45,728 nucleotides of DNA from positions 1-45,728 of IMG/VR virus record IMGVR_UViG_3300021142_000055, one strand, 5' to 3'. Position 1 is the stretch's first letter; each line of letters starts with the position of its first letter. The notes below the pieces were generated by a model. The model did not search any database. It saw nothing but the letters and a program-made list of their open reading frames with translations, and was not told the DNA's origin. Both the position numbers and the translations under genes were made by a program. The stretch comes from a virus. Positions 3,356 through 28,684 of the stretch are shown here, in pieces.

Positions 3356-3589
3356 TTATTTTGTAACTCCAGTATCGCCTGTTTGGAGATATCCTTTAAT
3401 TGCATGCATACTACTATTAGCAATTGCGATCTTATCTTGAACCCATGCTTCTAAGTCTTCTCCATCATTTATCATAGAAGCAATTTCTTGTGCATCTTTT
3501 ATAATTTCTTCTAATTTAGCTTTGTAAGAAGCGCCTTCAGCTTCTTCATTGACTTTAAAAAAGTCAGAGTAATTTTTAATATGTTTCAT
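3356..3589 (-). CDS. Small helical phage protein with leader-like N-terminus (77 aa)
   Basis: The product begins MKHIKNYSDFFKVNEEAE and continues as helices around residues 22-70 that contain the segment LEAWVQDKIAIA. I have the impression that short proteins with a similar E/P-x-W-V/A-Q-x-K-I helix are common in large tailed phages, but I cannot name the family or its function. The N-terminal leader matches those of the genes at 14024 and 15312 (M-K/R-x-I-K-x-F/Y-x-D-F/Y) and is followed by Glu-rich residues that could serve as a processing site. First gene of the minus-strand island, transcribed away from the tail module. Confidence 0.65.
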   Translation of the reverse strand: MKHIKNYSDFFKVNEEAEGASYKAKLEEIIKDAQEIASMINDGEDLEAWVQDKIAIANSSMHAIKGYLQTGDTGVTK

Positions 3590-11415: not shown

Positions 11416-12618
11416 ATGAACATTCAAAAAACAACAACATTAGAAGAATCTTCTTGGGATGTAATTATGACCCAAGATAGAAAAACAGCAAACCCAGAAA
11501 TTTTAAAGAAATATGGCGTTAAAGTTTTTAACAATGAGCCATACGCTTTAGATTTTTATGAAAAAGTTTTCTTAGGCGCAGATCCTGAAAGCAAAGAACC
11601 TAAAATAGGAGAAACTAGGAAAATTATAAACATTACTGCTGTAAATGAGAGAGAAATATTAGTAACTTTAAGTGGTCTTATTGACGCAGTCATTGATGTG
11701 AGAAGTGAAAAGCATTTTTGTTCTTTATTAAACATATCACCAGCTGAACTAATTGAATGGCTAAAACTTGATGAAAATAAAGAAGCATTTGTTGCTAGCG
11801 GATATACTGTTGTTGTTGAAATGATTAAACCTTATGTTAAAACATCGTTATCAAAAGGACATTCATTAAAAACAAAAGCTGAGTTTTTCAATGAAATACG
11901 TAAACCATCAGCTGCTTATTACGGTAAAATAAAAGAAAAGAATGGCGGTGGATTTATTATAAATGTACAAGGTGTTGATGGATTCTTACCTGGATCATTG
12001 GCTGCTACAAACATTGTACGCGATTTTGATTCTATGATAGGAAAGGAAATTCCTGTTATGGTTGAAGACTATTTAAAAGAAAGTGATACATTTGTTTTTT
12101 CTTATAAAAAATATATTAACACTGTTCTTAACTCAAAAATTAGTGATCTTGATTTGGACCAAAAATACATAGGTACAATAACAGGTTCAGCTAAGTATGG
12201 ATTGTTTATTGAGTTTAACGATATATTCACAGGACTTATACATACAAGTAAAATGACTCCTGCTACATATTCAAAATTTAATAAAGGATCATTTAAAGCA
12301 GGTGATACAATTGAGTTTTGGATTAAAGAAATTACAGAAGATAAAAAATTAATCTTAACTGATGAAGATCCTTCAATTAGAAGAGGTCAACTTGAAGAAT
12401 TTAAAAATGAAAATTTAGGAAAAACTAAAGAAGCTGAAGTTGTATCAGTTCAGTCTTTTGGGGTTCTTTTTAAATTACAAAAAGATATCGTTGGTTTAAT
12501 TTCTCAAAAAGAAATTAAGTCAAAGAAAAAGAACTTTGCAGTTGGTGACAAAGCAATGGTCACAATTGACAGAGTTTATAATGATAAAATTTTCCTTTCG
12601 TTACCAAATGAAGATTAA
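11416..12618 (+). CDS. Ribosomal protein S1-like, multiple S1 domains (400 aa)
   Basis: The protein is built of S1/OB RNA-binding domains at about residues 163-234 (AYYGKIKEKNGGGFIINVQG, then VDGFLPGS), 246-318 (KYIGTITGSAKYGLFIEFN, then GLIHTSKM) and 334-398 (EAEVVSVQSFGVLFKL, then VGLISQKEI), with a degenerate one at 65-147. In bacteria S1 brings mRNA to the 30S subunit. Bacterial S1 usually has four to six domains and about 350-600 residues. Its presence among tail genes is unusual. A 43-base gap precedes it, containing an AT-rich GATATATACC element, so it may have its own promoter. The last 11 bases overlap the amidoligase-like gene. Possible roles are redirecting translation to phage mRNA or acting as an RNA chaperone. 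Confidence 0.85.
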   Translation: MNIQKTTTLEESSWDVIMTQDRKTANPEILKKYGVKVFNNEPYALDFYEKVFLGADPESKEPKIGETRKIINITAVNEREILVTLSGLIDAVIDVRSEKHFCSLLNISPAELIEWLKLDENKEAFVASGYTVVVEMIKPYVKTSLSKGHSLKTKAEFFNEIRKPSAAYYGKIKEKNGGGFIINVQGVDGFLPGSLAATNIVRDFDSMIGKEIPVMVEDYLKESDTFVFSYKKYINTVLNSKISDLDLDQKYIGTITGSAKYGLFIEFNDIFTGLIHTSKMTPATYSKFNKGSFKAGDTIEFWIKEITEDKKLILTDEDPSIRRGQLEEFKNENLGKTKEAEVVSVQSFGVLFKLQKDIVGLISQKEIKSKKKNFAVGDKAMVTIDRVYNDKIFLSLPNED

Positions 12619-14020
12619 AAAGAATTACTCAAAAACTGAAGTTTTAGACGGTGTAAGAATCGGTTTTGAATTTGAAATGTATTCATCGCTTGATGTTTTT
12701 GAAACAGCAAAACAATTGGCTAAATATACTAAGAAAAGAGTTGTAGTTCCACTATCTCTTAGTGATATTAATAACCCAAAACCTTTATATCATTCACCAG
12801 TTGCACCAACAGCTGATATTTTTAAACTTGAACCTGATTATTCAGGAGGTAAAAATATGTGTGAGCTTGTAACTGGTCCTATGAAATATAGCGATGCCAG
12901 AAACATCTTAATTAAAGTTTTTGAGTGGATTCAATCAAATGGTTATACAAATGAAAGATGTTCTATTCACGTAAACATGAGTATTGATGGTGATGTTATA
13001 CCTACTCTTTCAACAATAGAAAATATTAACATACCTAAATTTATACTTTCTTTTGACGAAGGAAAAATCTTTGATAAATTCCCATCAAGAAAAGATAGTG
13101 TTTATGCTAGAAGTATAAAACAAATTAGGCCAAACCGAGTACTTTTTTATTCTCCTACTTTAGAAGATTTTAGTAGATCTACTTTAACACTTCCTTCTGA
13201 TGAAAAATATTACGGAGTTAATTTTTTGAAAGCTGAAAAAGGTTATCTTGAATACAGATACTTAGGCGGAAAAGATTATGAAAAGAAAAGTAAAACAATT
13301 CTTGATATCATTGAGTATATAGCTATTCATTTATATGATACTTTAAACTTTACAGGATTTACTGAAAAGGAAAGATCTGACTTTAAAAAGATGACAGATA
13401 TTGATAAGAAAATATATGAAGGATTTGCTAGATATGCAGATTTTAAAAAGAAGTTTCCTGATATTAAAGTATCTATTGATATGGTTGATGATCCACAAGT
13501 ACTTGAAGGAGTTTGGGTAAATTTACGAGATAAACTTTTTGATTTAATTATAACAGGTAAAATGTCAAAAGGAGAATTTAATTATGATACTGAATTAGGA
13601 AGATATCAATTAAAAAAGACAAAAGTTGTTAATTGTAAACTTTCTGATTTTGAATTTATTGAATGTGATATTGAAGGTATCATAACAAGATCTTGGTTTT
13701 ATGAATGTAACTTGAAAAATAGTCGTATTACTGAAAGTGAGTTTTTAAAATCAAACACAATAGATTTTTCAAAAATTGCTGAATGCGAATTACATGTAGG
13801 TAATATCTGTAATGACTGTTATATTGAAAATAAAAAACTTGCAATTAACTGTGAAGTTAATCGTGGGGTTATTCGTAATGGTGAAATTGGTAAATTAGCA
13901 AAATTATCAAAAGATACATTAGTTGTTGAAGGCCAGCCTGCTGAAGCTGGTAATGCTGGAAGCAGTTCTTTTAGTGATCCTAATCAAGACAAAAACAACA
14001 AGAAAAGAAAAAAAGAATAG
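12608..14020 (+). CDS. Amidoligase-like enzyme fused to pentapeptide-like beta-helix (470 aa)
   Basis: I choose the ATG at 12608 (MKIKKNYSKTEV); upstream in-frame codons lie inside the S1-like gene. Residues 14-225 have the glutamine-synthetase-like amidoligase pattern (COOH-NH2 ligase superfamily): GFEFEM at 19-24, ELVTGPM at 86-92, SIHVNMS at 119-125 and LEYRYLGGKD at 214-223. Such enzymes use ATP to form amide bonds. Residues 336-440 show repeated short units with hydrophobic or Cys positions every five residues (CKLSDFEFIECDIEG; WFYECNLKNSRI), suggesting a pentapeptide-type right-handed beta-helix. The tail 455-470 is Lys-rich. It is followed by a very acidic small protein and, 1.3 kb on, an amidotransferase-like gene, the usual kind of partner. 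The substrate is unknown. Confidence 0.7.
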   Translation: MKIKKNYSKTEVLDGVRIGFEFEMYSSLDVFETAKQLAKYTKKRVVVPLSLSDINNPKPLYHSPVAPTADIFKLEPDYSGGKNMCELVTGPMKYSDARNILIKVFEWIQSNGYTNERCSIHVNMSIDGDVIPTLSTIENINIPKFILSFDEGKIFDKFPSRKDSVYARSIKQIRPNRVLFYSPTLEDFSRSTLTLPSDEKYYGVNFLKAEKGYLEYRYLGGKDYEKKSKTILDIIEYIAIHLYDTLNFTGFTEKERSDFKKMTDIDKKIYEGFARYADFKKKFPDIKVSIDMVDDPQVLEGVWVNLRDKLFDLIITGKMSKGEFNYDTELGRYQLKKTKVVNCKLSDFEFIECDIEGIITRSWFYECNLKNSRITESEFLKSNTIDFSKIAECELHVGNICNDCYIENKKLAINCEVNRGVIRNGEIGKLAKLSKDTLVVEGQPAEAGNAGSSSFSDPNQDKNNKKRKKE

Positions 14021-14023
14021 GCT

Positions 14024-14395
14024 ATGAGATACATTAAAAAGTTTGAGGATTATGTTGCTTCTTTTAAAAGCAACAAGATTAATCATAACGATGAAGATAC
14101 AAAAGATGATAAAATTGCTGAAGTATCAACAAATGATAAAGGTTTTGTAATTGAATGCGATGGTGATACAATTGCTATTGAAAGTGGGTTAGATGAAGGT
14201 AATGAAGAAGTTCCTGCTGAAGAAATCACTAAAGCACTAGAAAAACTTAATGTTAAAAAAGTTTCTTTTGAAAATGAAGATGGTGAGAAAGAAACTCATG
14301 AAGTAAATGAATTTCTTAAGCACTTAAACCCACTTAGATGGAAATTATCAAAACGTCATAGATCTATATATGGTCATGTTAAAAGTGATGAATAA
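14024..14395 (+). CDS. Very acidic small protein with leader-like N-terminus (123 aa)
   Basis: A 123-residue protein beginning MRYIKKFEDYVASF, the same leader seen at 15312 and in the minus-strand gene at 3356-3589. About a quarter of residues are Asp or Glu, concentrated between 20 and 95. The C-terminal 25 residues switch to basic (RWKLSKRHRSIYGHVK). No family recognised. It begins 3 bases after the amidoligase-like gene. It could be a packaged internal protein, a DNA mimic or the substrate of the neighbouring amidoligase. None of these is shown by the sequence. Confidence 0.65.
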   Translation: MRYIKKFEDYVASFKSNKINHNDEDTKDDKIAEVSTNDKGFVIECDGDTIAIESGLDEGNEEVPAEEITKALEKLNVKKVSFENEDGEKETHEVNEFLKHLNPLRWKLSKRHRSIYGHVKSDE

Positions 14396-14429
14396 TCATT
14401 TTGAAAACTTTTAAAATAATTTAAGCAAA

Positions 14430-15215
14430 ATGACTAGAGATGAATTAATAGAATTAATAAATTCTGAGATAACAGGAAGCGGGTCATTACCATATTCAGT
14501 ACCTCCTCGTGAGTCTGAACGTATTATTAATCAAGCTCTTAATTGGTTTTATATTAATTATGGGCCTGCTGTTGAAACACAATATTATGTAATTGAAAAA
14601 TCTTGGTTTACCGACCCTGAGTTTAAAAAAACACGAAGTATTCTATTACCTGATTGTGTTATGTCTGTTACTGAATGTAAAGAAATAAGCGGAGCAGGTA
14701 GGTTAGGTTCAATTGACCGCGATTTTTCTGATAACAGACTTCTTGCTGCTGAAATTTATCTTGCGCCTTTTGCTTCAGATGATTTAGTTTTGAGAACTGC
14801 TCAATATTCTTATTGGGATTTAACTGCAGCATTCATTCTTGATAAAGTTAGATTTGATTTTAATAGAAATACACACAGACTAAAAATAACAGGTCGTGAT
14901 CCTAAAAAGGATGTTTTTATTGATACTCTTGTTAAAATTGAAGAAACAAAATTATATGATGATTGGTTTTTTCAGAGATGGGTTACAGCTCAAACAAAAA
15001 TATCATTAGCAAATATTATAGGATTCTTTCAATTTAATCTTCCTGGAGGAATTGAAGTTAATGGAGATAACTTAAGAGAATCAGGTAAAGAAGAATTGGA
15101 ACAAATAAAACAGAGAATTGATGACGAAAATGCACCTGATTGGTTTTTCGTTTTCCACTCTTTTATAACGCCTATCATTTGTATAGGAAGTTTATTAAGT
15201 AATTTTACAATCTAG
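14430..15215 (+). CDS. Virion-type protein, possibly neck/tail completion (261 aa)
   Basis: Residues 1-45 (MTRDELIELINSEITGSGSL, then PRESERIINQALNWFYINYG) form amphipathic helices, and residues 60-215 are mixed alpha/beta. The opening resembles helical connector or neck proteins of large myoviruses, but I cannot assign it to T4 gp13, gp14 or gp15. After PDWFFVFH (residues 235-242) there is a short hydrophobic tail (SFITPIICIGSLLSNF) that looks like an extension. It ends with TAG at 15213-15215. The 96-base gap after it is A/T-rich and holds only a negligible 20-codon frame. Confidence 0.55.
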   Translation: MTRDELIELINSEITGSGSLPYSVPPRESERIINQALNWFYINYGPAVETQYYVIEKSWFTDPEFKKTRSILLPDCVMSVTECKEISGAGRLGSIDRDFSDNRLLAAEIYLAPFASDDLVLRTAQYSYWDLTAAFILDKVRFDFNRNTHRLKITGRDPKKDVFIDTLVKIEETKLYDDWFFQRWVTAQTKISLANIIGFFQFNLPGGIEVNGDNLRESGKEELEQIKQRIDDENAPDWFFVFHSFITPIICIGSLLSNFTI

Positions 15216-15311
15216 AGTATTTTCATAATGAATTTAAAAAAACAGCCAGTGCTAAATAAAAATATTTCATATGAGCTTATTGTTTATTAAAATATTTAAA
15301 AATAAAAAAGT

Positions 15312-16025
15312 ATGAAATATATTAAACTTTTTGAAGACTTTATAAGTAACAAACCAAAGCCTAAGATTGTAATGTATTATGATAAAGGAGTTAGTGTTGA
15401 CACTGCTAGCATTTGGTCCAACTTTTTTCGTGAATATTTTGCTATTGAGCCACATGAAATGAGATCTGACGAATTTGATTATAAAGATTTTAAAAACGCG
15501 GATCTTATTGTTATTCCAGGCGGTTCTAGTGAACTTGAAATTACAGCTATGACTGATAGCGGTAAAGAAGGTCTGAAAAAATTTGTTAATGATGGTGGAA
15601 AAGTTCTTGGCGTATGTGCTGGTGCTATTTTAATATCTGAATGTTATGATTGGTCTTTAGGAATTATTAAAGCACATCATAATAAAGATTTTCATGAGCA
15701 CATTCAAAATAAAACAGCATTTTTAAATTTTAAATTTGAAAATGCAGGCAAAGAAGTTTTTAGCACATTACTTGATGAAGTAAATCTTTATTATCATTGG
15801 GGTCCTGTGTTTGTTAGTGCAGATTCATCTTGTGAAGTTTTATTAAGGTTTAATAGTGAAGTGCCACGAGAATCTAAAGAATCTGAATCATCAATTGATA
15901 AAATAGCATCTATTTATTCAGCATACGGAAAAGGACATGCATTAGCAATAAGTCCACATATAGAAAAAAGTGAAAAAGTTAAATATCTATTAGCTAATGC
16001 TATAAATTACTTATTAAATAAATAA
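15312..16025 (+). CDS. Class I glutamine-amidotransferase-like protein, BPL_N type (237 aa)
   Basis: Residues 17-235 match the amidotransferase-like fold of the biotin-protein-ligase N-terminal (BPL_N) family: PGGSSELE at 69-76, the nucleophile elbow GVCAGA with Cys102, YYHWGPVF at 160-167, and ISPHIE at 213-218 giving His216 and Glu218 to complete a triad. It could release ammonia from glutamine or act as a hydrolase on a peptide-like substrate. Residues 1-15 (MKYIKLFEDFISNKP) are extra to the domain and match the leader of two other proteins here. Its stop overlaps the gp25-like start (TAATG at 16023-16027). With the amidoligase-like gene at 12608 it forms a candidate modification pair. Confidence 0.75.
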   Translation: MKYIKLFEDFISNKPKPKIVMYYDKGVSVDTASIWSNFFREYFAIEPHEMRSDEFDYKDFKNADLIVIPGGSSELEITAMTDSGKEGLKKFVNDGGKVLGVCAGAILISECYDWSLGIIKAHHNKDFHEHIQNKTAFLNFKFENAGKEVFSTLLDEVNLYYHWGPVFVSADSSCEVLLRFNSEVPRESKESESSIDKIASIYSAYGKGHALAISPHIEKSEKVKYLLANAINYLLNK

Positions 16026-16387
16026 TGTTAAAAGAAATTTATTGTAGAAATGAAAATGATCCTTTTTATGTTAATAGGATTTTGGAAACAAAAGATCCAA
16101 TAGAAGCTCTATTAACAAAATTAAGGATGATCCTGTTTACTAAAAGAGGCGAAATTTTAGGTGAACCGGATTTAGGCTTAGATCTTGATTCTATGCTATT
16201 TCAACTTAATTATAATGGTTTCCAAATACAAAGAGATTTTTATGCACAGATAGGTAAGTATTGCCCTGAAGCTAAAAATTATAAAATAGTAATTGAAGTG
16301 AATTTTGTCCCTGGAACTGTTAGAGATATATGTTACATAGATATATACATAGACGGTACAAAATATCTTGGTGTCGTCGGAAAATAA
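16025..16387 (+). CDS. Baseplate wedge protein, gp25-like (120 aa)
   Basis: gp25 is the core wedge subunit that triggers sheath assembly in contractile systems. The diagnostic segment is at residues 41-59, RGEILGEPDLGLDLDSMLF, matching the conserved G-E-x-x-G-x-P-x-x-G pattern. The length is typical (T4 gp25 has 132 residues). The start overlaps the previous stop by one base, and it is followed 10 bases later by the gp6-like gene, the order seen in many contractile phages. Confidence 0.9.
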   Translation: MLKEIYCRNENDPFYVNRILETKDPIEALLTKLRMILFTKRGEILGEPDLGLDLDSMLFQLNYNGFQIQRDFYAQIGKYCPEAKNYKIVIEVNFVPGTVRDICYIDIYIDGTKYLGVVGK

Positions 16388-16397
16388 GACATCATAT

Positions 16398-18101
16398 ATG
16401 GGATTAGACATTTTTAATTATAGCAGAATACGTTTTGACCAACTTTATCAAGACTCTAAAGATTACCTAACAAATAAATTTTTACAAGTAGGTGAAGTAT
16501 TCTCACCAGCAAGTGCATACGGACAACTTTTAGGTGTTATAATTGATTTAGGTAAATTAATTTTTTATTACGTAGAAGATAGTATAACAGAGCTAAACAT
16601 TTATACTGCAACTCGTGATACTTCTGTTCGTAGTTTAGCAAGAATAGCTGGTCATAACCCAACAAGAGCAATTGCTGCAAGCGGTACTGTTTATCTTACA
16701 TATAATGGTAACCCTATTGATATGTACGGTAATACTGCAATCATACCAAATTACACTCGTCTTTCAGACAATTCAACTGGTTTAACATACACACTATCTT
16801 TTGATAGCGAAGATTTGCGTATGCAATTAAGTGGAAGTACAACTGTTGAAGCTAAAGTTGTTCAAGGAGTTATTGAATCTCAGACAGTAACAGGAACAGG
16901 CGAAGTTTTACAATCATATAATATAAATCCAAAAAGAGGATCACAAATTGACAATTTCTTTATTAATGTTTATGTTAATGGAGAAGTTTGGAAAGTTTAT
17001 GATTCAATATACGATATGCCTTACCAAGTAAATGGTGTTGTTGTTAAAACAGGGATTAATGCAGGTATTGACTTGTACTTTGGAAATGGCTTTTTTGGTG
17101 CTATACCTCCTGTAGGATCTTCTATAAGAGTTGAATATTTATCAACAAGCGGTAACGCAGGTAATATATTAGAAGGAGAAGTAGCACAGTTTCAATTTAT
17201 AGATGATATTTATGATTTAGCAGGTAACACTATTTCTGCTAATGATGCAATAGGTATATCTATAGCAAATCCTATTATATTTGGTTCAGATTCAGAACCT
17301 ATTTTTTTAACTAAAATATTAGCTCCAAAAACTTCACGTTCTTATGTTTTAGCAAATACTGATTCATATGTTTATTTCTTAGAAAAATTTAATATATTTA
17401 GTGTCATAGATGCTTTTAGTACTTTTAATGATAATGATATTTCAGATGATAATGTAGTTTATCTTTTTTTAATACCTGACGTAAATAAAAGAAAGCCTTC
17501 TAATGATGATTATTTTACAGTGCCTATTAATCTTTTTACATTAACAGATGCTGAAAAAAATAAAGTATATGACTTCATTGAACAAAGCGGACAAAAAATT
17601 GTAACTACAGTCATAAAAATTGTTGATCCTATTGTTAAAAAATATGTTGTTAACATAAACATAACAGCATATGCAGGATATAGCAAAGATAGCTTAACAC
17701 AACAAATAATATTAAAATGTAGTGATTACTTTTTAGCAAATCGTAGACGTGATCGTATACCAAAATCTGATCTTATTGGAATCATTGAAACTATTCCAGG
17801 AGTTGACTCTGTTAACTTATGGTTTGTTAGCGAAGAGAATGAAGCTTTTAAATCAAATACTGCAAATGTAAGTTCAGCTGATATAGGCATAGATTCTTTT
17901 GGCGATATAATAATTAACCGCGGAGAATATGCACTTATTAGAGGAGGGTGGTCTGATAGATCAGGGTATTTTTATAATGATACATCTATACAGTCTAAAC
18001 CAGGAAGTATAAATATTGCATACGGCGCTGATACATCTAATTCTTTTAATATGGAATTACATCGTATTAATTTAGATAACATAAAATCAACTACAAATTA
18101 A
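16398..18101 (+). CDS. Baseplate wedge protein, gp6/Baseplate_J-like (567 aa)
   Basis: The start is the ATG at 16398; an in-frame TTG at 16368 lies inside the gp25-like gene. The N-terminus (FDQLYQDSKDYLTNKF, about residues 11-26) and residues 49-85 (DLGKLIFYYVEDSITELNIY, then RSLARIAGHNPTRA) are characteristic of Baseplate_J/gp6 proteins. The C-terminal part has YVVNINITAYAGYSK, the beta-alpha domain, and RIPKSDLIGIIETIPGVDSV, another hallmark. gp6 forms the iris ring of the baseplate around gp25. T4 gp6 has 660 residues. The gene precedes an 88-residue protein and the giant wedge protein. Confidence 0.9.
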   Translation: MGLDIFNYSRIRFDQLYQDSKDYLTNKFLQVGEVFSPASAYGQLLGVIIDLGKLIFYYVEDSITELNIYTATRDTSVRSLARIAGHNPTRAIAASGTVYLTYNGNPIDMYGNTAIIPNYTRLSDNSTGLTYTLSFDSEDLRMQLSGSTTVEAKVVQGVIESQTVTGTGEVLQSYNINPKRGSQIDNFFINVYVNGEVWKVYDSIYDMPYQVNGVVVKTGINAGIDLYFGNGFFGAIPPVGSSIRVEYLSTSGNAGNILEGEVAQFQFIDDIYDLAGNTISANDAIGISIANPIIFGSDSEPIFLTKILAPKTSRSYVLANTDSYVYFLEKFNIFSVIDAFSTFNDNDISDDNVVYLFLIPDVNKRKPSNDDYFTVPINLFTLTDAEKNKVYDFIEQSGQKIVTTVIKIVDPIVKKYVVNINITAYAGYSKDSLTQQIILKCSDYFLANRRRDRIPKSDLIGIIETIPGVDSVNLWFVSEENEAFKSNTANVSSADIGIDSFGDIIINRGEYALIRGGWSDRSGYFYNDTSIQSKPGSINIAYGADTSNSFNMELHRINLDNIKSTTN

Positions 18102-25500: not shown

Positions 25501-26262
25501 ATGGCAAGAACGAAAAACAAAGCCAAATCCGATGAATACTTTGATGAAGTATTCCCATTAGGATATACACCAACAGTTCAATCTAAATTTAATATTGAAA
25601 AAATTGGTGTTGATTTAAAATGCAAAAATCCAAATCAAAAAACTTTTATAAATTTAATTTGTGATAATAAAATCACAATCGCAGCTGGTCCTGCAGGAAC
25701 CGGTAAAACTTACTTAGCTTGTGCTCAAGCATTAAAACTGTTAAAGACTGATACCCGTTTTAAAAGAATAATTCTCGTAAAGAGTGTAACGGTTTTAGAA
25801 GGTGAAGAAGTAGGCTTCTTAAAAGGAGATCTTAAAGAAAAAATGTATCCTTTTACTGTTTCATTTCTTGATAACTTTCATAAACTTATTGGTGAAGGAT
25901 TAACGCAAATCATGCTTGATATGGGTATGATTCAAGTTTTACCGCTAGCATATATTCGTGGCCGTTCTATTGATAACGCAATCATTATTGTTGACGAAGC
26001 GCAAAACATCTCAAAAAAGAACATGCGATCTACATTAACTCGTATAGGCACAGACACAAAAATGATTATCACCGGAGATACGAAACAAATTGATATGAAG
26101 AATAAAGATATATCTTCACTTGAATTAGTTGTTCAACTATTTGCAGGCAAACCTAACATAGGAACAATGGAGTTTGAGAAAAAGGATATCGTGAGAGACC
26201 CTATAGTCCAACTTATTGAAGAAGTTTTTGATGAATGGGAAGATTCACAAAAGAAAAATTAA
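25501..26262 (+). CDS. phoH: PhoH-like ATPase (253 aa)
   Basis: A P-loop ATPase of the PhoH family, which is common in large phages and thought to act in RNA metabolism. Walker A is GPAGTGKT at 63-70, Walker B is IIIVDEAQN at 161-169, and the sensor motif TGDTKQID is at 191-198. The SVTVLEGEEVGFLKGDLKEK region, about residues 95-114, is the conserved PhoH helix pair. The length is typical for the family. Its stop codon overlaps the stop codon of the convergent minus-strand SET-domain gene, with no terminator between them. Confidence 0.9.
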   Translation: MARTKNKAKSDEYFDEVFPLGYTPTVQSKFNIEKIGVDLKCKNPNQKTFINLICDNKITIAAGPAGTGKTYLACAQALKLLKTDTRFKRIILVKSVTVLEGEEVGFLKGDLKEKMYPFTVSFLDNFHKLIGEGLTQIMLDMGMIQVLPLAYIRGRSIDNAIIIVDEAQNISKKNMRSTLTRIGTDTKMIITGDTKQIDMKNKDISSLELVVQLFAGKPNIGTMEFEKKDIVRDPIVQLIEEVFDEWEDSQKKN

Positions 26263-26711
26263 AAAGGATATTTTTTAATATACCCACTTTTAGCATTAAA
26301 CCAATGTTCGCCATAAGAAACAAATAACTGTTCACCGGCGGATATTGGTTTTATTGTTTGTATACCTATTAAATTTAATTGATAATAAGCAATAAACTGA
26401 CAATTATTATCATCTTTATGATTATACAACCCAGCCCATCCTAAAGGAAGTCCGCCATCATTTTGCCAGTTTACTGTGTATTGGTCAAGTTTTAAATCAT
26501 TATCCGACATACCTTCAGCTCGACAAGTCCAAATTGTCATCTCCATAACATTTTTAGGATAAACAATAATAGGAGCTATTTCAACAATAGTGTTTTCATT
26601 AATACTTTGAGTAGTAAATACACCCCAGCCATTAATCTCAGGCACAGGATGTATTTCTAATCTTGAGTCTATAAAAGGATTATAATTGAAGTCCTGATGG
26701 TTTTTTTGCAT
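26259..26711 (-). CDS. SET-domain protein (150 aa), putative lysine methyltransferase
   Basis: SET domains transfer methyl groups from S-adenosylmethionine to protein lysines. Motifs seen: GWGVFTTQSINENTIV at 28-43 (the G-x-G SAM-binding strand), LYNHKDDNNCQ at 95-105 (the N-H-x-x-x-x-N pseudoknot motif, Asn97 and His98), and EQLFVSYGEHWF at 127-138 with Tyr133. There are no flanking pre- or post-SET zinc clusters, as in short bacterial and viral SET proteins. It is the second gene of a minus-strand pair. Its start overlaps the end of the Zn-ribbon gene by 32 bases, and its stop overlaps that of phoH. Confidence 0.8.
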   Translation of the reverse strand: MQKNHQDFNYNPFIDSRLEIHPVPEINGWGVFTTQSINENTIVEIAPIIVYPKNVMEMTIWTCRAEGMSDNDLKLDQYTVNWQNDGGLPLGWAGLYNHKDDNNCQFIAYYQLNLIGIQTIKPISAGEQLFVSYGEHWFNAKSGYIKKYPF

Positions 26712-27856: not shown

Positions 27857-28684
27857 ATGCCTGAAGTTGCAGAAGTAAAAATTATGTCTGACTTCATTAA
27901 TAATGTAGTTGGTCTTGATACTTTTTATGAATATATTGGAAAGTCAGAAGTTTCAAAAGTTAAAACTGATCTTGATGTTTTTGAAGATGGGATTTTTTCA
28001 ATTACTGCTCAATCAAGAGGTAAAGAACTTATTCTTAATCTTGAACTTGTAGGAGGAGACGTTAGTAATGTTTTAATTAAAAGGCTATCTTGTTCAATGG
28101 GAATGAGCGGAAATTGGATTTACATTAAAAAAGATAGCGAAAAATTAGAACAAGCTTTAAAACATGGACATTTAAGATTTAAAAGTACTCGAGGAAATTA
28201 TTTAATTCTTTATGACCCACGAAGATTTGCTAAATGGAAATGGACAGATACTTGGACAAAAGGAAGAGGCAATTGTCCTTTAACTGAATATAATGATTTT
28301 AGTTTAATTTTAAGAACTAACATATATAAACATAAGGATTTTAATAAACCTATATCAGAAATTCTAATGAATCAAAAATGGTTTAATGGAATAGGTAATT
28401 ATCTTAGAGCTGAAATATTATATCGTTTAGACATTAATCCTTTTCAACCTGCTAATCAATTAACACATCAGGAAGTTGATCTGTTATGTACAATTACACA
28501 TCTCTGTGTTAGAGATGCTTATCAACTAGGTGGAGGACAATTAAAAGATTGGTATAATCCTAACGGTGTAAATGGAAACTCATTTAATGAATGGGTAATG
28601 TGCTATGGAAAAATGAGTTCTATTATTGATGGAACTGGTCGTAAATTTTGGTTTGATCCTAAATGGGAATCTTACCAAGTTTAA
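27857..28684 (+). CDS. Fpg/Nei-family DNA glycosylase without zinc finger (275 aa)
   Basis: Excises oxidised bases and cuts the resulting abasic site. The N-terminus MPEVAEV gives the catalytic Pro2 and Glu3, with Glu6. Lys56 in RGKEL is the conserved beta-strand lysine. LRFKSTRGNYLILYDPRRFAKW is the usual strand pair before the helix-two-turn-helix, here GIGNYLRAEILYRLDINPF. The C-terminus has only one Cys (in VMCYGKM) and lacks the four-Cys zinc finger; DGTGRKFWFDPKWE occupies the place of the finger hairpin and keeps the DNA-contacting Arg. This resembles the zincless finger of NEIL1-type enzymes. It is in an operon with the exonuclease. Confidence 0.85.
   Translation: MPEVAEVKIMSDFINNVVGLDTFYEYIGKSEVSKVKTDLDVFEDGIFSITAQSRGKELILNLELVGGDVSNVLIKRLSCSMGMSGNWIYIKKDSEKLEQALKHGHLRFKSTRGNYLILYDPRRFAKWKWTDTWTKGRGNCPLTEYNDFSLILRTNIYKHKDFNKPISEILMNQKWFNGIGNYLRAEILYRLDINPFQPANQLTHQEVDLLCTITHLCVRDAYQLGGGQLKDWYNPNGVNGNSFNEWVMCYGKMSSIIDGTGRKFWFDPKWESYQV

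What the first reader, a model, noticed from the sequence alone, without database searches (positions are those of the whole stretch)
12608..16025. Candidate peptide/protein-modification system inside a tail operon: amidoligase-like plus amidotransferase-like genes
The protein at 12608 has the glutamine-synthetase-like amidoligase motifs (GFEFEM, ELVTGPM, SIHVNMS, LEYR). The protein at 15312 has the Cys102/His216/Glu218 triad of the BPL_N amidotransferase-like family. Such pairs are known from predicted operons that make or edit amide-linked peptides. Here they are interleaved with virion genes (S1-like, acidic protein, virion-type protein, gp25, gp6). A phage may add or remove amide-linked groups on a virion, cell-wall or host protein target. 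I know of no characterised example in a tail module.
Basis: partly seen in the sequence, partly recalled or inferred. Interest (0 to 1): 0.85.

Follow-up and report, generated by a model that had tools for sequence, protein, structure and literature searches.

The report
Core tail amidoligase, unpaired capsid-cargo amidotransferase
Both enzymes are real, but they are not a pair: one is an ancient peptide-bond-making enzyme kept beside the tail genes of hundreds of large phages, and the other is a one-off gene carrying an address label like the one T4 phage uses to load proteins into its head and inject them into the host.

Summary
The sequence observation holds. The 12608 protein has a glutamine-synthetase-like amidoligase fold (AF2 pLDDT 86; Foldseek hits to glutamine synthetases and phage amidoligases) plus a pentapeptide beta-helix. 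The 15312 protein is BPL_N (E=1.4e-18) with C102/H216/E218 intact.

The pairing fails. The amidoligase sits in a nearly invariant block, S1-like / amidoligase / Ad2 / gp25 / gp6, in about 93 of 98 loci, and occurs in huge phages up to 735 kb. BPL_N occurs in none of these loci, nor in 15 relatives searched whole, including a neighbour 87% identical in the amidoligase.

BPL_N has a 17-residue leader, MKYIKLFEDFISNKPKP, where its bacterial homologues have signal peptides. Related leaders (consensus MKxIKxFxxFINE|A) start dozens of unrelated proteins in these phages, including ADP-ribosyltransferases. They match the T4 capsid-targeting sequence at the mapped targeting and cleavage residues, and the phages encode gp21-like proteases. 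Best reading: BPL_N is a recently gained capsid cargo injected into the host; the amidoligase is a core tail-linked enzyme of unknown substrate. Novel parts: the syntenic tail amidoligase, and a T4-like cargo tag in huge phages. No biochemistry or virion mass spectrometry was possible.

The parts
11416..12618 (+). S1-like RNA-binding protein, upstream partner in the conserved block; its stop overlaps the amidoligase start by 11 nt
   Evidence: Pfam S1 E=4e-16; adjacent in 93 of 98 loci; found in 14 of 15 relatives searched whole
12608..13561 (+). Amidoligase (glutamine-synthetase-like) domain, about residues 1-318; invariant E21, E23, E86, R161, K200, N205, E215, R217
   Evidence: the domain boundary is my reading of the predicted secondary structure
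13571..13930 (+). C-terminal pentapeptide-repeat beta-helix of the same protein, about residues 322-441
   Evidence: Pentapeptide_4 in 14 of 17 members, best 5.6e-6; profile match to MfpA 9.1e-5; beta ladder in the model
13931..14017 (+). Disordered Lys-rich C-terminal tail, residues 442-470
   Evidence: pLDDT below 50 over 442-461; sequence
14024..14395 (+). Acidic protein with a CTS-like leader MRYIKKFEDYVAS; occupies a variable cargo slot between amidoligase and Ad2
   Evidence: 15 of 23 slots over 250 bp hold a tagged gene
14430..15215 (+). Ad2-type head-tail adaptor, core gene
   Evidence: phrog_211 E=1.8e-12; 95 of 98 loci
15312..15362 (+). 17-residue leader MKYIKLFEDFISNKPKP ahead of the BPL_N domain; T4-like targeting positions F7 and F10 present, cleavage Glu replaced by Asn13
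   Evidence: residue roles in T4 from PMC9026906
15363..16025 (+). BPL_N (class I amidotransferase-like) domain; Cys102 codon 15615-15617, His216 codon 15957-15959, Glu218 codon 15963-15965
   Evidence: Pfam BPL_N E=1.4e-18; alignment
16025..16387 (+). gp25-like baseplate wedge, core gene
   Evidence: phrog_43 E=7.7e-7; 93 of 98 loci
16368..18101 (+). gp6/Baseplate_J-like wedge, core gene
   Evidence: phrog_219 E=7.2e-27; 91 of 98 loci
3356..3589 (-). Small protein with a CTS-like leader MKHIKNYSDFFKVNE

Best explanation
Two unrelated components lie side by side. (1) The 12608 protein is an active-looking ATP-dependent amidoligase fused to a pentapeptide beta-helix, a core gene of the baseplate block. 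It most likely forms an amide or isopeptide bond on a tail or assembly protein during or after tail assembly, with the helix as docking surface; the substrate is unknown. (2) The 15312 protein is a recently gained cargo gene: a BPL_N thiol hydrolase or amidotransferase whose N-terminal leader acts like the T4 capsid-targeting sequence. It would be loaded into the prohead core, kept in the head, and ejected with the DNA to act on a host protein or metabolite, as T4 Alt does. Shown by sequence: the families, the conserved residues, the block, the absence of co-occurrence, the leader, its enrichment and its cleavage consensus. Inferred: packaging, ejection, chemistry and targets.
For: Amidoligase: more than 553 relatives in viral contigs. 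Block conserved in 98 loci: S1 93, Ad2 95, gp25 93, gp6 91. In four rearranged genomes of 634-735 kb it still lies within 15 kb of tail genes. Catalytic residues invariant down to 27% identity. BPL_N: 0 of 98 loci and 0 of 15 relatives. Leader: the tag occurs at 18, 11, 3, 11 and 7 ORF N-termini in five relatives against 1, 2, 0, 0 and 0 internal sites. The 46 tagged proteins form 37 unrelated body clusters. Of these, 31 have [ILVF]xE|[AGSND] in residues 9-22, with E at 13 in 21, against 66 of 831 untagged ORFs (Fisher 2.8e-21). gp21-type protease Peptidase_S77 is found in 9 of 10 relatives, 5 above cut-off. Tagged proteins include ARTs, GNAT, ATP-grasp and nucleotidyltransferase; all 5 ART-PolyVal genes of G009 are tagged. 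The Ad2-gp25 slot holds tagged genes in L017, L018 and L108. Bacterial BPL_N homologues carry export-type leaders and none of 57 has the tag.
Against: The BPL_N leader has Asn at the cleavage position, so processing is not predicted; in T4, Asp at that position blocks cleavage but still allows targeting (PMC9026906). The T4 comparison is a motif match, not demonstrated homology. I found no virion proteomics for this clade. BPL_N structure was not modelled. The substrate of the amidoligase is unknown, and synteny alone does not prove that it acts on the tail.
Confidence: 0.62

Rival explanations
1. One reading: amidoligase and BPL_N form one pathway that adds and removes (or supplies ammonia for) amide-linked groups on a virion, wall or host target.
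For: Both enzymes look catalytically intact and lie 1.3 kb apart in one transcription direction. Amidoligase plus glutamine amidotransferase clusters exist in other phages (PMC3890496, PMC10580990).
Against: BPL_N is missing from all 98 syntenic loci and 15 relatives that keep the amidoligase; the known partner is class II GATase_6, also absent; BPL_N carries a leader shared with unrelated proteins.
Confidence: 0.06
2. The amidoligase modifies the translation apparatus together with its S1-like neighbour (a RimK-like idea: amino acids ligated to a ribosomal or S1-like protein), not the tail.
For: S1-like is directly upstream with overlapping or near-overlapping reading frames in most loci, and occurs in 14 of 15 relatives.
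Against: Linkage to Ad2, gp25 and gp6 is equally tight. In the 634-735 kb phages S1-like lies far from the amidoligase while tail genes stay near.
Confidence: 0.15
3. The amidoligase fold is a structural, catalytically idle baseplate part.
For: Fused to a pentapeptide beta-helix and in a baseplate gene block. H121 is Gln in 3 of 35 sequences.
Against: Nine active-site-type residues are invariant across sequences down to about 20-27% identity, which a scaffold role does not require.
Confidence: 0.15
4. The MKxIKxFxxF leader is not a capsid-targeting sequence but another signal, for example for import into a replication compartment or for translation initiation.
For: Only motif evidence exists; some tagged proteins, including the window BPL_N, lack the cleavage Glu.
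Against: The motif reproduces the T4 positions mapped for targeting and cleavage, the Glu peaks at residue 13, gp21-type proteases are present, and cargo-type enzymes are marked.
Confidence: 0.2

Closest known systems
Amidoligase_2 (PF12224) and phage amidoligase clusters of LUZ24-like, HMO-2011-type and phiEco32 phages
   Same: Glutamine-synthetase-like fold and ExE / E / H / ExR motifs; Foldseek hits to such proteins, including phage tf
   Different: Those examined in the literature sit in early or replication modules with GATase_6, ATP-grasp, GGCT (PMC3890496; PMC3517423; PMC10580990). Here it is in the baseplate block, with no such partner, and fused to a pentapeptide helix
Amidoligase of Agrobacterium phage Atu_ph07 (AUZ94978.1) and tandem gp124/gp125 of Salicola phage SCTP-2
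   Same: Same superfamily; the Atu_ph07 gene lies near portal and prohead genes
   Different: No S1 / Ad2 / gp25 block seen at those genes; longer proteins
BPL_N (PF09825) proteins of Bacteroidota
   Same: Class I amidotransferase-like domain, C / H / E triad, YYxGPVF, YGKG
   Different: Bacterial homologues have export-type leaders; the phage protein has the CTS-like leader
T4 capsid-targeting sequence of internal proteins, and the packaged ADP-ribosyltransferase Alt
   Same: Short shared N-terminal leader on unrelated proteins, [FY]xxF[IL]xE|A pattern, gp21-type protease, ARTs among the cargo
   Different: 13 rather than 10 residues; in phages up to 735 kb; many more kinds of predicted cargo; no experimental proof

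Membership tests
Amidoligase_2 / glutamine-synthetase-like amidoligases | Profile match above the curated cut-off | tested here: inconclusive
   Window protein 18.0 bits against 22; 16 of 35 relatives match, best E 3.1e-5; linked through Atu_ph07, which passes
Amidoligase_2 / glutamine-synthetase-like amidoligases | Glutamine-synthetase-like fold | tested here: met
   AF2 pLDDT 86; Foldseek to glutamine synthetases E 8.8e-6 and to phage amidoligases E 9e-12; TM to PDB entries is low (about 0.25), so similarity is at fold-core level
Amidoligase_2 / glutamine-synthetase-like amidoligases | Conserved metal/ATP ligands | tested here: met
   E21, E23, E86, R217 invariant in 35; H121 in 32 of 35
Amidoligase_2 / glutamine-synthetase-like amidoligases | ATP-dependent amide-bond formation | not testable with these tools
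   Needs purified protein
Phage amidoligase plus amidotransferase cluster | Co-occurrence with a GATase | tested here: not met
   BPL_N 0 of 98 loci and 0 of 15 relatives; GATase_6 0 of 9; GATase_3 0 of 9 above cut-off
BPL_N (PF09825) | Profile match above cut-off | tested here: met
   67.3 bits against 24.2
BPL_N (PF09825) | Cys / His / Glu triad | tested here: met
   C102, H216, E218, conserved
BPL_N (PF09825) | Hydrolase or transferase activity | not testable with these tools
   No assay or solved close homologue (one search finds only DJ-1-type)
T4-type capsid-targeting sequence | Shared leader on otherwise unrelated proteins, at N-termini only | tested here: met
   46 proteins, 37 body clusters; N-terminal far above internal counts
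T4-type capsid-targeting sequence | Prohead-protease cleavage consensus after the leader | tested here: inconclusive
   31 of 46 tagged proteins have it against 7.9% of controls, but window 15312 has Asn13 and 14024 has no Glu
T4-type capsid-targeting sequence | gp21-type prohead protease encoded | tested here: met
   Peptidase_S77 in 9 of 10 relatives, 5 above cut-off; the window fragment itself was not shown to hold head genes
T4-type capsid-targeting sequence | Protein found in the head and ejected | not testable with these tools
   Needs virion mass spectrometry

The most novel reading that the evidence does not exclude
A large clade of phages, including the largest known (up to 735 kb), carries an obligate tail-module amidoligase that covalently modifies its own tail or an infection target, and uses a T4-like leader to load dozens of different host-modifying enzymes (ADP-ribosyltransferases, acetyltransferases, ligases, BPL_N) into the head for injection, so that the injected proteome can be read from sequence.
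Probability: 0.35. Interest if true: 0.82.

Novelty: new variant of a known kind. Interest (0 to 1): 0.62.

Why it matters
A core enzyme with an intact active site inside a baseplate block implies covalent chemistry in tail assembly or infection that has not been described for these phages in the literature I could search. The shared leader gives a sequence rule for predicting which proteins huge phages inject first, a long-standing gap because almost none of them is cultured. Both ideas can be tested directly by virion mass spectrometry and by reporter packaging in T4.

Tried and rejected
Paired system: rejected on co-occurrence. BPL_N relatives in phages: none convincing in viral contigs with two queries, or in INPHARED (the weak hits are short and in unannotated records). 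First genome scan with BPL_N alone found nothing; the two-sequence profile found Bacteroidota homologues, but that set is biased by the Parabacteroides seed, so I draw no host conclusion. SCTP-2 amidoligases as tagged cargo: gp125/gp124 start with MKFNQIKTNQINEG / MKFEHIKNNRTIQEG, but the pattern is not N-terminally enriched in that genome (6 against 6; 0 against 5 with the T4-derived pattern), so it is not claimed. Foreign origin by composition: GC of the BPL_N gene equals its surroundings. The first structure job with 12 sequences gave pLDDT 69.6 and was replaced.
Full report
What is there. The window is a linear IMG/VR virus fragment with a tail gene cluster. The 12608 protein alone misses the Pfam Amidoligase_2 cut-off (18.0 bits against 22). 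Relatives and structure settle the question: 16 of 35 family members match (best 3.1e-5), a family profile hits the Atu_ph07 amidoligase at 3.1e-23, and that protein passes the Pfam cut-off. A model built from 39 natural homologues (pLDDT 86, pTM 0.79) matches glutamine synthetases (8.8e-6) and many viral amidoligases (9e-12). TM-scores to PDB entries are low, so the likeness is in the fold core. The C-terminal half is a pentapeptide beta-helix. The 15312 protein is BPL_N with its Cys-His-Glu triad.

The amidoligase is core. The single-sequence search gave 16 loci, the profile more than 553. Over 98 loci, the order S1-like, amidoligase, Ad2, gp25, gp6 is nearly invariant: 93, 98, 95, 93 and 91 occurrences, the losses being contig ends and the rearranged largest genomes. 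The same gene is in uncultured phages of 462, 634, 636, 642 and 735 kb; the four largest lengths match the genomes of Al-Shayeb et al. (PMC7162821). In those four, order and strand are changed but tail genes remain within the 15 kb flank. E21, E23, E86, R161, K200, N205, E215 and R217 do not vary in 35 sequences. This is the conservation expected of an enzyme needed in every infection, not of an accessory gene.

BPL_N is not its partner. It is missing from all 98 loci and from 15 relatives searched whole with the Pfam model, including L003, 87% identical in the amidoligase, where only 10 bp separate Ad2 and gp25. Of 92 loci with this slot, 88 have a gap under 250 bp. A gain in the window lineage is the simplest account. 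Class II GATase_6, the partner in known phage clusters (PMC3890496, PMC10580990), is also absent in 9 relatives.

The leader. BPL_N begins MKYIKLFEDFISNKPKP, and the domain starts only after it. A pattern drawn from this start lies at ORF N-termini 18, 11, 3, 11 and 7 times in five relatives, but internally only 1, 2, 0, 0 and 0 times. The 46 tagged proteins collected from four of the relatives and the window fall into 37 unrelated body clusters. In 31 of 46, [ILVF]xE|[AGSND] follows in residues 9-22, with Glu at residue 13 in 21, against 7.9% of 831 untagged ORFs (Fisher 2.8e-21). In T4, targeting depends on residues 4 and 7 of the IPIII leader and processing on residues 8 and 10 (PMC9026906). 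With the T4 leader as I remember it (MKTYQEFIAE, own knowledge), Y4, F7, I8 and E10 align with F/Y7, F10, I/L11 and E13 here. A pattern built from the T4 positions is N-terminally enriched in six relatives and includes T4-length forms such as MKNYSEFITE|G; SCTP-2, run as a comparison, gave 0 N-terminal and 5 internal. A T4 gp21-type protease is found in 9 of 10 relatives. Tagged proteins include ADP-ribosyltransferases, as T4 Alt is, an acetyltransferase, an ATP-grasp ligase and a nucleotidyltransferase; all five ART-PolyVal genes in one 374 kb relative are tagged. The slots either side of Ad2 are cargo hotspots: 15 of 23 occupied amidoligase-Ad2 slots hold a tagged gene, and the Ad2-gp25 slot where BPL_N sits holds tagged genes in L017 and a run of them in L018, and an ART-like tagged gene (by eye; no Pfam hit) in L108. 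Bacterial BPL_N homologues instead begin with export-type leaders, and none of 57 carries the tag.

Mechanism. Step 1 (inferred): the leader places BPL_N in the prohead core. Step 2 (inferred): with Asn at residue 13 it probably stays uncut; T4 tolerates a non-cleavable residue there for targeting. Step 3 (inferred): it is ejected with the DNA and its Cys102 thiol attacks a host amide or related substrate. For the amidoligase: ATP-dependent activation of a carboxylate and ligation to an amine on a tail or assembly protein, docked by the pentapeptide helix; only the active-site conservation, the fusion and the gene block are shown.

Limits. The window was not shown to include head genes, so the protease was shown only in relatives. 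The T4 likeness is a motif argument. Only parts of some genomes were scanned for the tag (400 of 462 kb for LR756500; 240 of 636 kb for LR756504; 160 of 735 kb for LR756501). The literature library holds open-access papers only; within it, two papers join jumbo phages with capsid targeting sequences and both concern SPN3US, and no paper found describes a tail-block amidoligase.

Noticed in passing
L017:10238, L018:18062-19264, L145:8241-9437: DUF7487 / TnsA-like endonuclease genes sit in the same Ad2-gp25 slot where the window has BPL_N (Pfam-confirmed in L018 and L145; L017 by sequence resemblance); possible homing elements that keep this slot open.
   Followed up: partly
L023:13930-17690 (SCTP-2 gp125, gp124): Two tandem amidoligase-like paralogues annotated as hypothetical proteins.
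   Followed up: partly
LR756501 380816-381376(+): A second, weaker amidoligase-like stretch in the 735 kb phage (E 1.5e-6).
   Followed up: no
G009 (374 kb): 5 ART-PolyVal genes: All five ADP-ribosyltransferase genes carry the CTS-like leader.
   Followed up: yes
window 11416-12618: S1-like protein is a conserved neighbour in a tail block, so S1-domain proteins of huge phages may not be purely translational.
   Followed up: partly
window 14430-15215: Ad2 is 261 aa here against 243 in most close relatives, with a divergent hydrophobic C-terminus next to the BPL_N insertion.
   Followed up: no
window 25501-26262, 26259-26711(-), 27857-28684: By eye: PhoH-like ATPase, SET-like and Fpg/Nei-like proteins inside the tail region; not searched.
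   Followed up: no
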